This document shows positions 1,880 through 5,903 of a stretch of 44,639 nt of DNA, piece by piece. The DNA lies in IMG/VR virus record IMGVR_UViG_3300025237_000008, positions 1-44,639 of that record, one strand, 5' to 3'. The position numbers and the translations under genes were made by a program. Origin of the DNA: a virus. Positions within the stretch are counted from its first letter, which is position 1. Every line of letters begins with the position of its first letter. The notes under the pieces were generated by a model. The model searched no databases. It worked only from the letters and a program-made list of their open reading frames with translations, and had not been told where the DNA came from.

Positions 1880-1908
1880 TTGACCATCAATCATAATTAA
1901 CCTATTGT
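1880..1908 (+). promoter_or_regulatory. sigma70 promoter of the structured RNA
   Basis: TTGACC (1880-1885), exact 17-bp spacer, TATTGT (1903-1908). The predicted start is near 1915, at the left edge of the structured region. No open reading frame follows. It is divergent from the promoter at 1825-1853. Confidence 0.6.
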
Positions 1909-1989
1909 TTGCTTTGTGCAGTGCGAAGTATGGCACGTAAAGACACAAGGATTTATTGAGGAAGCCAAGACAATATTTATTGAGCCTCA

Positions 1990-2115
1990 GCAAACCTGCA
2001 AAAAGGTCTAGCCAGTGAGCGGTAATGTGTGTAATGTTGGTTTTTATTAGATAGCCCATACGTAAAAGTATCTAAGCAAACCTGTAAAAAGGTCAGTCCA
2101 TGTACGGTAATGTGT
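1990..2115 (+). repeat. 85-nt tandem duplication inside the structured RNA
   Basis: GCAAACCTG(C/T)AAAAAGGTC occurs at 1990-2008 and 2076-2094, and CGGTAATGTGT at 2020-2030 and 2105-2115, with the same order and nearly the same spacing. Each copy can form an ACCT/AGGT hairpin with an A-rich loop. Confidence 0.75.
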
Positions 2116-2590
2116 AAATTGGGAGAGCGTGGCAACGTACCGACTGAGAGAGTGTCACCCAGCTATTTTGTAGTATGAGCGCAAGGCTTATCGAAAGTGG
2201 TGGTCGGATAGTTTATCATTAACTTAATAAGTGAGGTGGTATTTCTAGTAGCTATGACGTTATATAGCATTGCTAAGCACGGTCGAGAGATAGAGCGAGG
2301 CTAAATAGAATGCAATGGTGTGTGTAATAAAGGTGCGTCACGAGAATAACGAAGTCGTAGCGCTGCGATTGATACCTTAACCGCTTAGGCGCTGAACGGT
2401 TATTACACACAACCGGTGCATTCTGTACCAATCAATTTAGATTTAGCCGCTCATTAATTTGGGCGGTCTTTTAAAAGAGTTTATAGGTGTGTGATGACCA
2501 TGTGCGTAGGATGACCCGCAAGCCACTAAATCGATAAGAGTCATTAATTATCACACAACCTATACACTCTTCTCTATTTCAAACCCTCTA

Positions 2591-2620
2591 AAACCCACTC
2601 TAATCGGTGGGTTTTCTTTT
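2591..2620 (+). terminator. intrinsic terminator ending the structured RNA
   Basis: AAACCCAC (2591-2598), 8-nt loop, GTGGGTTT (2607-2614), then a U-rich tail. It separates the RNA from the late promoter of the tail tube gene. Confidence 0.8.
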
Positions 2621-2681: not shown

Positions 2682-3194
2682 ATGGCAACAGGCTGTAAAC
2701 AAGATTTAGATATTGGCCGCAATCTGATTGTGCGCTGGGCAGAGGCTTGTGGTTCAGAAGACCCACTTTCAACAGCAGATACACCACTAACTTACAAGCC
2801 GCTTGGTTATACAACAACCAAAGCAATCAACGAATCAACACGTACCACTGATGCGAATAACGATACATCTGGCGCGTATCAGAAGACATTGCAAACTGGT
2901 TTTGGTATGGAAATACCAGTATCTGTATTTACATCGGCAGATATTGTTGACGTTAGTACGCAAGAGGAATTGCGAATTTACCGACGCACTGAAATTGCAG
3001 CTGGTCGCCAAGCTACTGTATGGCTTGAGCTTACAAATACACAACTAAGCGTTAAAGAGTACGTATTTTGCCTAGTTAACGATGTTTCTCGCTCATACGG
3101 TAATGAAGATGTTAACACTGGTGATTTCAACTTTATGATGATTGCCACTGATGACAGCGCAAACCCAGCATACCAAACGGAAGCTATCGTATAA
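2682..3194 (+). CDS. major tail tube protein
   Basis: 170 aa, the usual size for a siphovirus tube protein. It has a beta-rich sequence and an acidic C-terminal half with a region (SRSYGNEDVNTGDFNFMM) typical of tube-protein families in which a long loop and beta strands build stacked hexameric rings. It is the first gene after a terminator and a late promoter, and it is followed by chaperone and tape measure genes, the standard order. GGAG lies upstream of the ATG. Its stop overlaps the next start (TAATG). Confidence 0.8.
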   Translation: MATGCKQDLDIGRNLIVRWAEACGSEDPLSTADTPLTYKPLGYTTTKAINESTRTTDANNDTSGAYQKTLQTGFGMEIPVSVFTSADIVDVSTQEELRIYRRTEIAAGRQATVWLELTNTQLSVKEYVFCLVNDVSRSYGNEDVNTGDFNFMMIATDDSANPAYQTEAIV

Positions 3195-3767: not shown

Positions 3768-5903
3768 ATGGCTGAGAACTTAGGCTCGATTAGGTATGAC
3801 TTCGATGTTACGACAGCGCCACTATTTAAAGCGTCTGACACTGTCAATAAAACGACTGACAGCATAGTTAGCGACTTTAAGAGAGTTGATAGCTCATCAA
3901 AAAGCCTAAATACGCAAGTAACAAAAACCGCTGATGGAGTCAAGAAAAGCGTACACAGAAACTTCGGCCAAGCTGGTATTCAGGTGCAACAATTCGTAGG
4001 TCAGTTGCAAGGCGGCCAATCTGCAATGCTTGCTCTATCCCAGCAATCAGCGGATTTGGGTATTGTATTGGGTGCGCCGATGATAGGTGTAATAGTGTCG
4101 CTTGGTGCTGTATTGCTTGGAACTTTACTGCCATCATTGATGAGCAATAAAACTAGCGCTGACGCACTGGCAAAATCTGTTGAAAATGTAAAAGCAGTAA
4201 TGACACTTGGAGCTGGTGGCGTTGCTGAATACACGGAAGAAATGGAAAAGCTGAACAAGGTTAGCAAGCAGCTTGCAAAAATACAGTTGGCACAAGCCAT
4301 CGTTGAGCAAAACAAAGTTATAAAACTGTCAGCAAAATCTGTAATTGAATCAGCTCAAAATACATCAAAGCTTTACGAATCAACATTCAGCAATATGAGA
4401 GCGCTTGCGGAAAAGGTTGCTGTTGATATTGGCGGAAGTATGGCGGATGTTGCCAAGGCTGTTTCAGGCGATTCACTAAAACTTGGATCATCTGGGAGCT
4501 ACTTAACTGCCGACTTAGATAAGATATCCAGCAAGTTCAAAATAACTAGAGAGGAGGCCTTAGAGCTTGGTCTAGCGTTTTCTGACGTATCCAAGAAAGG
4601 CGATGCTATGTCGCTCAAGTCCCTGCAGAACGTGCTTGAGGACTTATCGGAAACTTACGGCTATAGCAATGAGGAAATAACAAAGCTGGGTGCTGGTGTA
4701 GTTCAATTTCTTGTTAGCGCTAACTCTGCAACGGATGGAATTAACGAGCTAAGAGGTGCCATAACAGGTACTGGTGATGGCATTGATGAGCTGACAGGGA
4801 AAACCAAAGAGGCTAGCGACACCTTTGTATCACTAAGTACCCAGCTTGAAATAGAAAAGGTAAGACTTGAACAGGGTGAAAGAGCAGCATTTCAAAAAGC
4901 GCTCAAAATGCAAGAGCTTACTGATGAGCAAATAAAAAACCTTACGGTGCTATGGGATGAAAACGAAGCTTTAAAGAAAAACAACGAAGCGCGAAATGAG
5001 GCTAGTAATGAGCTTGAAAGAGAGATTGACGGATACATTAAGCTAGCTGATGCTGTTGTTGCATCTGAAAATGCAAAAAAAGAAAGGGAGATATCACAAG
5101 GCCAAACTTTTGCTCAGGGAATAATTGAGAGCGGTATGACTGAGCCAGAAAGGCTGCAAGCGGAAATTGAAGAGCTTGAAATACTGCGAGATAAAGACCT
5201 TGAGAATAGACAGCTTTACAATGATGCGATAGCAGTTACTGAGCAGAAAAAAGCAGACGCAGTAGCGGCAGCAAAAGAGAAGGAAATTAAATCTCAAGCA
5301 CTATTCAATCAATCACAGTCTCAGTTGCTTGGCTCTGTAGGCAGTTTGATTGGCGCTTATGCCGACAACATGGAAGTCGAAGATAAAAAATCTTTTGAGA
5401 AGAAAAAGAAATTCCAAACAGCTCAAGCTTTAATAAATACGGCAATGGCAGTATCAAACGCATTAGCAGCGGCGCCACCTCCAGTAAGTTACGCGCTAGC
5501 TGCTGCAGCGGGTGCAATGGGCGCAATGCAAGTATCAGCAATCCAAGGTCAAGAGTATTCAGGAGGTCGTGAATTTGGCGGTCCTGTTTCTGCTGGCTCA
5601 ATGTATCGCGTAGGTGAAAAGGGTAAGCCTGAGTTTTATAAAGATAACTTAGGTAATCTTTCAATGATACCTGGCGAGAATGGCGAGGTTATACCAGCTA
5701 ATAAAATGGGCGGTAGTGGTGGCGGCATGACCGTTCAGGTTAACAACTATACTCCTTATCAAGTTTACGTAACGCAAGACCAAGCTGCTAACATAGCAAA
5801 AGTTGAGATAGGTAACGAGGCGGGAAAGTTACAAAAAGGACGCGGCAACATGTATAATGCTATGAAGTCAGGCGGCAACTACTCAAACAACGCGAAGAGG
5901 TAA
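3768..5903 (+). CDS. tape measure protein
   Basis: 711 aa and the longest coiled-coil-rich protein of the tail block. It sets tail length and is ejected with the DNA. The N-terminal region is predicted helical, with a hydrophobic transmembrane-like stretch around residues 95-125. Long charged helices occupy about 330-520. An alanine-rich segment (NTAMAVSNALAAAPPPVS) lies near 560, and a Gly-rich C-terminus follows a GEKGKPEFY motif common in phage tape measures. At about 1.5 angstrom per residue, 711 aa predicts a tail of roughly 100-110 nm. Confidence 0.85.
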   Translation: MAENLGSIRYDFDVTTAPLFKASDTVNKTTDSIVSDFKRVDSSSKSLNTQVTKTADGVKKSVHRNFGQAGIQVQQFVGQLQGGQSAMLALSQQSADLGIVLGAPMIGVIVSLGAVLLGTLLPSLMSNKTSADALAKSVENVKAVMTLGAGGVAEYTEEMEKLNKVSKQLAKIQLAQAIVEQNKVIKLSAKSVIESAQNTSKLYESTFSNMRALAEKVAVDIGGSMADVAKAVSGDSLKLGSSGSYLTADLDKISSKFKITREEALELGLAFSDVSKKGDAMSLKSLQNVLEDLSETYGYSNEEITKLGAGVVQFLVSANSATDGINELRGAITGTGDGIDELTGKTKEASDTFVSLSTQLEIEKVRLEQGERAAFQKALKMQELTDEQIKNLTVLWDENEALKKNNEARNEASNELEREIDGYIKLADAVVASENAKKEREISQGQTFAQGIIESGMTEPERLQAEIEELEILRDKDLENRQLYNDAIAVTEQKKADAVAAAKEKEIKSQALFNQSQSQLLGSVGSLIGAYADNMEVEDKKSFEKKKKFQTAQALINTAMAVSNALAAAPPPVSYALAAAAGAMGAMQVSAIQGQEYSGGREFGGPVSAGSMYRVGEKGKPEFYKDNLGNLSMIPGENGEVIPANKMGGSGGGMTVQVNNYTPYQVYVTQDQAANIAKVEIGNEAGKLQKGRGNMYNAMKSGGNYSNNAKR

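What the first reader, a model, noticed from the sequence alone, without database searches (positions are those of the whole stretch)
1880..2620. A roughly 700-nt highly structured non-coding RNA in the middle of the tail operon
Seen: a promoter (TTGACC-17-TATTGT), no credible gene, dense nested and long-range pairing, and an intrinsic terminator. The 3' half forms a long composite stem (2293-2306 with 2441-2452, then 2307-2330 with 2400-2424) that encloses a junction with two hairpins. A second arm of about 20 bp (2475-2495 with 2550-2571) follows. Known: phages carry large ornate RNAs (GOLLD, ROOL) of 500-900 nt, some of which self-assemble into cage-like particles. Inferred: this may be a divergent member or a new class.
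Basis: partly seen in the sequence, partly recalled or inferred. Interest (0 to 1): 0.88.

Follow-up and report, generated by a model that had tools for sequence, protein, structure and literature searches.

The report
Modular phage RNA with swappable caps
Between two tail genes of a marine Pseudoalteromonas-type phage lies a real, previously unclassified non-coding RNA of about 700 bases, built as a conserved chassis with clamp-like stems on which different phages mount interchangeable RNA parts, including transfer RNAs and tRNA look-alikes, beside a strong match to the ribosome's mRNA-docking sequence.

Summary
Window ~1914-2620 has a conserved promoter, a conserved terminator, no credible gene, and homologs in at least 20 distinct phage sequences at two genomic positions. 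The structure is proven by compensatory change, not by folding energy, which is only moderately unusual. Three elements recur: a 5'-terminal hairpin; a pseudoknot core (P1-P3) preceded by an 'extended Shine-Dalgarno' (consensus UAAGG-N-GGUGAU) without a consistent start codon; and one or two clamp stems ('slots': 8 bp, mismatch, 3-4 bp, bulged A, 7 bp). Other relatives carry true tRNAs next to the core. No Rfam family except tRNA matches, so it is not GOLLD, ROOL, OLE or HEARO as tested. Function is inferred: most likely an RNA that docks on 30S subunits and displays tRNA-like cassettes, perhaps against tRNA-targeting defences. I consider it a new RNA class, similar in setting to GOLLD/ROOL, different in architecture.

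The parts
1880..1908 (+). sigma70-type promoter TTGACC-17-TATTGT
   Evidence: aligned -35/-10 (TTGAC .. TATTGT) in H103, H40/1, XCL1123, L012, L018, L038
1914..1948 (+). 5'-terminal hairpin UUGUG..CACAA enclosing GUGC/GCAC, with conserved CGUAAAGACACA
   Evidence: 12 homologs, always directly after the -10 box; fold
1949..2228 (+). variable cassette site 0: holds a diverged direct repeat (1986-2030 and 2072-2115) and a stretch shared with IMG/VR L018 (2053-2301, 95%)
   Evidence: other phages have different modules or small ORFs here
2229..2240 (+). extended Shine-Dalgarno-like element AAGUGAGGUGGU (family consensus UAAGG-N-GGUGAU), complementary to the 16S rRNA 3' end
   Evidence: median -14.8 kcal/mol over 24 phages against -6.9 for gene starts of this window; no consistent start codon downstream
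2235..2301 (+). core pseudoknot: P1 2241-2245/2287-2291, P2 2251-2255/2264-2268, P3 2272-2278/2295-2301 with loop ACGGUCGAGAGAUAGA
   Evidence: covariation; covariance model R1 hits
2307..2330 (+). slot 1, 5' strand: outer 8 bp 2307-2314, mismatch A2315, clamp UGGU 2316-2319, inner stem from 2320
2331..2399 (+). module A: exchangeable cap of slot 1 (slot 2 in phage H103)
2400..2424 (+). slot 1, 3' strand: inner stem, bulged A2411, clamp ACCG 2412-2415, mismatch G2416, outer UGCAUUCU 2417-2424
2415..2429 (+). alternative hairpin GGUGCA/UGUACC, mutually exclusive with the outer stem of slot 1
   Evidence: covariation (weaker: 8 distinct rows)
2446..2472 (+). terminator-like hairpin GCCGCUC/GGGCGGU followed by CUUUU; it is the final terminator in phages that have one slot
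   Evidence: sequence comparison; not called by the terminator scan
2476..2495 (+). slot 2, 5' strand: outer 8 bp, T2484, AGGU clamp, GUGUGAU
2498..2545 (+). module B: cap of slot 2, 48/48 identical in Vibrio phages, where it caps an unrelated hairpin directly 3' of tRNA genes
2550..2570 (+). slot 2, 3' strand: AUCACAC, bulged A2557, ACCU, UACACUCU
2590..2620 (+). intrinsic terminator AAAACCCACUCUAAUCGGUGGGUUUU-CUUUU

Best explanation
SHOWN: this is a phage non-coding RNA of a new family with its own conserved promoter and terminator. It has a 5'-terminal hairpin, a 16S-complementary element, a pseudoknot core, and one or two clamp stems. The clamp stems (and two open sites, before and after the core) carry interchangeable cassettes: RNA caps, tRNA folds, true tRNAs or tiny ORFs. 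INFERRED: the RNA is made from its own promoter during infection, docks on 30S subunits through UAAGG-N-GGUGAU pairing with the 16S 3' end, and displays or delivers tRNA-like cassettes near the ribosome. Each cassette would meet a different host threat to translation (for example a tRNA-cutting defence nuclease), as decoy or as replacement, which would explain why the caps are swapped like arms-race parts while the chassis stays constant. The alternative 3' hairpin may switch slot 1 between locked and released states.
For: Slots: 25 distinct sequences, 92.6% of pairs kept against 74% shuffled, 15 of 19 pairs with double changes, 0/500 shuffles as good. Core: 34 cells with double changes against 9.8 shuffled, 0/500. 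Model R1 built from Pseudoalteromonas phages finds the core 3' of tRNA genes in Vibrio phages. Cap swapping: module A in slot 1 or slot 2, module C in slot 1 (HS5) or slot 2 (L012), module F in two IMG/VR phages and next to tRNA-Gly in Shewanella phage ZP9. tRNA link: L033 slot 1 is a 60.8-bit tRNA fold with a UUU anticodon, L015 slot 1 is 46 bits; true tRNAs lie next to the core in L012, L013, L018, C7 and, by sequence, Pq0. The 16S-complementary element reaches median -14.8 kcal/mol, and 0.1% of window positions are as strong. Precedent that phage tRNAs counter tRNA-cutting defences: PMC10264068, PMC11455837.
Against: No transcript, ribosome binding or defence phenotype has been measured. 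Most caps, including both in the window, are not recognisable as tRNAs. The 16S element is weak in two members (L007, L015), and in several members a short ORF does start 8-22 nt downstream. No target nuclease is known.
Confidence: 0.35

Rival explanations
1. A GOLLD/ROOL-like large RNA that works as an RNA-only multimer; chassis and clamps are assembly parts and the cassettes are cargo or filler.
For: Same setting: phage, tRNA-linked, hundreds of nt, part conserved and part variable; GOLLD sometimes carries tRNAs in its linker (PMC12286853).
Against: No match to the GOLLD or ROOL models. Smallest members are only about 310 nt (PHS21). Caps are placed on defined clamps rather than in one disordered linker.
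Confidence: 0.2
2. A cis-acting element of the late operon: an attenuator or leader in which core, alternative hairpin and first terminator-like hairpin control read-through into the major tail protein gene (or terminase, or endolysin).
For: It lies on the coding strand of the genes around it. Mutually exclusive hairpins exist. In Vibrio phages P3 is followed by a U-run just before the endolysin gene.
Against: Downstream genes differ completely (tail protein, small genes before terminase, endolysin). A strong terminator separates the RNA from the tail gene. The related Vibrio phages 1.247, 1.122 and 1.214 run the same gene pair with only about 56 nt between. Regulation does not explain swapped caps and tRNAs.
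Confidence: 0.17
3. Debris of a tRNA array: once a phage tRNA operon, now degenerate, with clamps as old leader/trailer pairings.
For: tRNA folds and degenerate tRNA-like pieces occur in relatives (C7, L018, H103), and ARAGORN finds no tRNA in the window.
Against: Compensatory changes in clamps and core; promoter and terminator kept; module B 48/48 and module A 74/74 identical between phages whose chassis differs by about 10%. Decay does not do this.
Confidence: 0.08
4. A leader for tiny peptides: the strong Shine-Dalgarno serves short ORFs such as MTLYSIAKHGREIERG.
For: A short ORF begins 8-22 nt after the element in about half the members.
Against: Many members have no usable start codon, reading frames differ between members, and the region varies as base pairs (P2 98.6% paired) rather than as codons.
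Confidence: 0.08
5. A packaging or virion-assembly RNA, like the phi29 pRNA, for tail or head morphogenesis.
For: Placed among tail genes or ahead of terminase.
Against: It moves between loci and phage types, and syntenic phages lack it. Caps vary more than an assembly RNA should.
Confidence: 0.04

Closest known systems
GOLLD RNA
   Same: large structured phage RNA, one conserved and one variable part, near or containing tRNAs (PMC12286853)
   Different: no covariance-model match; different helices; defined clamps with swappable caps; strong 16S-complementary element; as short as ~310 nt
ROOL RNA
   Same: phage-borne, often near tRNA islands, unknown function (PMC12286853)
   Different: no covariance-model match; core and slot architecture differ (from the model test, not from a structural comparison)
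Phage tRNA arrays and defence-resistant phage tRNAs (T5 tRNA-Lys against PARIS)
   Same: tRNAs and tRNA-like cassettes; L033 slot cap has a tRNA-Lys-like UUU anticodon loop; a plausible reason for swapping (PMC10264068, PMC11455837)
   Different: here some tRNA folds are locked by their ends inside a larger RNA, without a CCA end, and one lacks a normal anticodon loop (L015)
Extended Shine-Dalgarno sites
   Same: complementarity to the 16S 3' end
   Different: no consistent start codon follows; the family median is as strong as the strongest of 29 gene-start sites checked in this window

Membership tests
GOLLD | match to the Rfam covariance model | tested here: not met
   E up to 10; E up to 1
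GOLLD | phage-borne, tRNA-linked, conserved and variable parts | tested here: met
GOLLD | forms a homo-oligomeric cage | not testable with these tools
   needs biochemistry or cryo-EM
ROOL | match to the Rfam covariance model | tested here: not met
OLE / HEARO | match to the Rfam covariance model | tested here: not met
tRNA (RF00005) | the caps of the window fold as tRNA | tested here: not met
tRNA (RF00005) | slot caps of relatives fold as tRNA | tested here: met
   L033 slot 1 60.8 bits, L015 slot 1 46 bits; not the other slots
Protein-coding gene (decayed) | homologs with an intact gene at this place, codon-like change | tested here: not met
   no ORF; homologs vary by compensating base pairs
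This RNA family (core model R1) | significant core match in phages other than those it was built from | tested here: met
   H103/XCL1123 33 bits, Vibrio phages 23-31 bits, highest background match 15.8 bits

The most novel reading that the evidence does not exclude
A phage-encoded RNA display platform: a ribosome-docked chassis with standardised clamps on which marine phages exchange RNA cassettes (tRNA mimics and other folded caps) as modular anti-defence or translation-takeover devices, the RNA counterpart of an anti-defence gene island.
Probability: 0.25. Interest if true: 0.95.

Novelty: categorically new. Interest (0 to 1): 0.82.

Why it matters
No described RNA family that I know of has a conserved clamp on which unrelated folded RNAs, tRNAs among them, are exchanged between phages. 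If the caps are decoys or resistant substitutes, the cap collection is a ready list of ligands for unknown host RNA-targeting defences. It also adds a third, testable case beside GOLLD and ROOL to the open question of why phages carry large tRNA-linked RNAs, and the 16S element gives a direct ribosome-binding prediction.

Tried and rejected
Rfam at gathering and relaxed thresholds: only tRNA in relatives, otherwise matches far below cut-off. Plasmids: no match. Bacterial genomes: a 21-base core pattern (17 fixed bases) had no exact match in 84,980 species genomes, and the neighbouring tail protein had none by the pattern scan, so this is not evidently a prophage element; the search is strict and not exhaustive. 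A short module-B pattern in IMG/VR gave only chance matches, as did four of the six matches of pattern GTACCAATCAATTTAGA. A conserved 'HGREIE' reading frame in the core was considered and rejected: start, stop and frame are not conserved and P2/P3 covary. My first clamp register for slot 2 was one base off and was corrected; alignments A2 and A4 were mis-built and not used. The alignments A1, A3 and A5 are blocks that I cut by hand to fit the proposed helices, so their counts lean towards the structure; the slid-strand controls and the independent model hits in Vibrio phages are the guard against that. Attempts to centre genome search on a host genome failed. No paper describing this region turned up in the open-access library, which lacks most subscription journals.

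Full report
Where it is. The window is a 44.6-kb virus record. The RNA lies between a gene of family phrog_782 (1023-1469; the tail-completion position), followed by a small gene on the other strand (1466-1789), and the major tail protein gene at 2682 (phrog_1407), ahead of the tape-measure gene. The major tail protein is 91% identical to that of Pseudoalteromonas phages H103 and XCL1123, so the phage most likely infects that genus (inference).

Is it real? No ORF of 80 aa or more lies in 1790-2681. Folding energy is better than shuffled (z -3.7; the two arms about -4.4 and -4.3) but ordinary within this genome (rank 9 of 592). Proof therefore rests on relatives. A DNA search found homologs in Pseudoalteromonas phages H103, XCL1123 and H40/1 at the same tail locus, and in SL25, PHS21, AL, PHS3, PS_L5, HS1 and HS5 at another place, upstream of the terminase genes. 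Pattern and model searches added IMG/VR contigs L012-L018, L033, L038 and L051, phages C7, TW1 and Pq0, and Vibrio phages. Vibrio phages with the same tail-gene order but without the RNA have only about 56 nt between the two genes, so the RNA is an insertion (inference).

Anatomy. (a) A 5'-terminal hairpin UUGUG..CACAA with the nearly constant CGUAAAGACACA stands directly behind the -10 box in 12 phages. (b) A variable site follows; it holds different modules in different phages, and small ORFs in L014, L017 and TW1. (c) An element with consensus UAAGG-N-GGUGAU matches the complement of the 16S rRNA 3' end at all 11 fixed positions; single members deviate, mostly in the length of N. Its median hybrid energy is -14.8 kcal/mol in 24 phages, against -6.9 for 29 gene starts of this window; 0.1% of window positions are as strong. 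Many members have no usable start codon within 26 nt, so it is not simply a gene's ribosome site. (d) A pseudoknot core: AUCUC pairs with GAGAU inside the loop of P3; P2 and P3 are present in several unrelated sequence versions. In 14 distinct rows 88% of pairs are kept (71% shuffled), with 34 double-change cells against 9.8 expected and 0/500 shuffles as good. P1 itself hardly varies, so it is supported by position and conservation, not by covariation. (e) One or two slots: 8-bp outer stem, 1x1 mismatch, 3-4-bp clamp (GGU:ACC in most, UGU:ACA in L051, CUC:GAG-like in L014), bulged A on the 3' side, 7-bp inner stem, then the cap. In 25 distinct rows 92.6% of pairs are kept (74% shuffled), 15 of 19 pairs show double changes, 0/500 shuffles as good, and sliding the strands destroys it; the bulged A is kept in 23 of 25. 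(f) Downstream of the primary slot, its 3' strand can instead pair with UGUACC; this alternative hairpin also covaries (2/500; 8 rows, so weaker). (g) A terminator-like hairpin follows slot 1; the final terminator is at 2590-2615.

Modularity. The window is a mosaic with breakpoints at the slot borders. Its slot-1 cap (module A) is 100% identical over 74 nt to that of AL, PHS3 and SL25 although the chassis differs by about 10%, and in H103 it sits in slot 2. Its slot-2 cap (module B) is 48/48 identical in Vibrio phages, where it caps a different stem just 3' of tRNA genes. Module C is in slot 1 of HS5 and slot 2 of L012. Module F is in L016 and L051 and, next to tRNA-Gly, in Shewanella phage ZP9 on its own two-part stem. 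Module D recurs in XCL1123, L038 and L018.

tRNA connection. L033 slot 1 scores 60.8 bits as a tRNA and carries a UUU anticodon loop. The related L015 slot scores 46 bits but has lost part of the anticodon loop (sequence). Both lack the usual GG in the D loop and both end in A-ACC clamped to GGU instead of a free CCA (sequence). True tRNAs follow the core in L012, L013, L018 and C7 and, by sequence, in Pq0. In Vibrio phages the core lies 3' of tRNA arrays; in K394 its P3 is a wholly different helix, AACCGCA/UGCGGUU (my reading; the model match is 23.2 bits). The Vibrio core matches are 23-31 bits, above the highest other background match (15.8 bits), and lie within about 150 nt of module B where that is present. 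I rate Vibrio membership as likely, not certain; the 1.278.O copy breaks one P2 pair in my reading.

What it is not. No Rfam model except tRNA matches. Setting and size resemble GOLLD and ROOL, which are also phage-borne, tRNA-linked and of unknown function; GOLLD can carry tRNAs in its linker and was reported to bind ribosomes in pull-downs (PMC12286853). Works-like and is-a are kept apart: the setting is similar, membership was tested and not met.

How it may work. The combination of 16S-docking sequence, tRNA folds and swapped caps points to translation during infection. Phage tRNAs are thought or shown to counter tRNA-cutting defences (PMC10264068; T5 tRNA-Lys against PARIS, PMC11455837). 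I propose a ribosome-docked chassis that displays decoy or replacement cassettes. Docking, display, release by the alternative hairpin, and the defence target are all inferred. A multimeric particle and a cis-regulatory role remain open.

The two arms are right. The outer helix 2293-2306/2441-2452 is only partly possible in homologs, rests on invariant sequence there, and competes with P3.

Novelty. I mark it categorically new because no known RNA family matched and I know of none with this clamp-and-cap architecture; a stricter reader could call it a new variant of the large tRNA-linked phage RNAs.

Noticed in passing
L014, L017 (upstream of the core) and L051 (just after the core): A tiny protein family (MKL[NT]KK.[RK]KKLLGMNSATK..) is encoded inside the same loci, before the core in L014/L017 and after it in L051: apparently a protein cassette in the RNA chassis.
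   Followed up: partly
L009 2929-3383, L008 3362-3499, L001 4060-4197, L011 2574-2726: Several annotated hypothetical proteins (HS5 gp39-gp42, XCL1123 QGJ84350, H103 AKA61194, K122_0026) lie on the RNA and look like mis-annotations.
   Followed up: partly
L045 about 2925-3001; the homologous stretch of L018: A degenerate tRNA-like element GCGAGG(C/T)..CCGAGCGCCA has tandem G-A mismatches in the acceptor stem and a compensated anticodon-like hairpin, but no usable anticodon loop.
   Followed up: partly
L001 about 4344-4400; the homologous stretch of L033: Short tRNA-like elements ending in ACCA with covarying acceptor stems (GGCGAGG/CCTCGCC, GGTGCGG/CCGCACC) but apparently lacking a D arm.
   Followed up: no
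L047 about 2338-2390 and the corresponding stretch of L051: A further conserved hairpin CUCGACUAUA..UAUAGUCCGAG follows the slot in TW1 and precedes it in L051.
   Followed up: no
window 1986-2030 and 2072-2115: A diverged tandem unit (AGCAAACCTGYAAAAAGGTC..CGGTAATGTGT, spacing 85-86 nt) in cassette site 0; its meaning is unknown.
   Followed up: no
L053 1783-1852 and about 2380-2400: Shewanella phage ZP9 carries an annotated int-alpA small RNA and a TTAAGGAGGTGAT element close to module F and tRNA-Gly.
   Followed up: no
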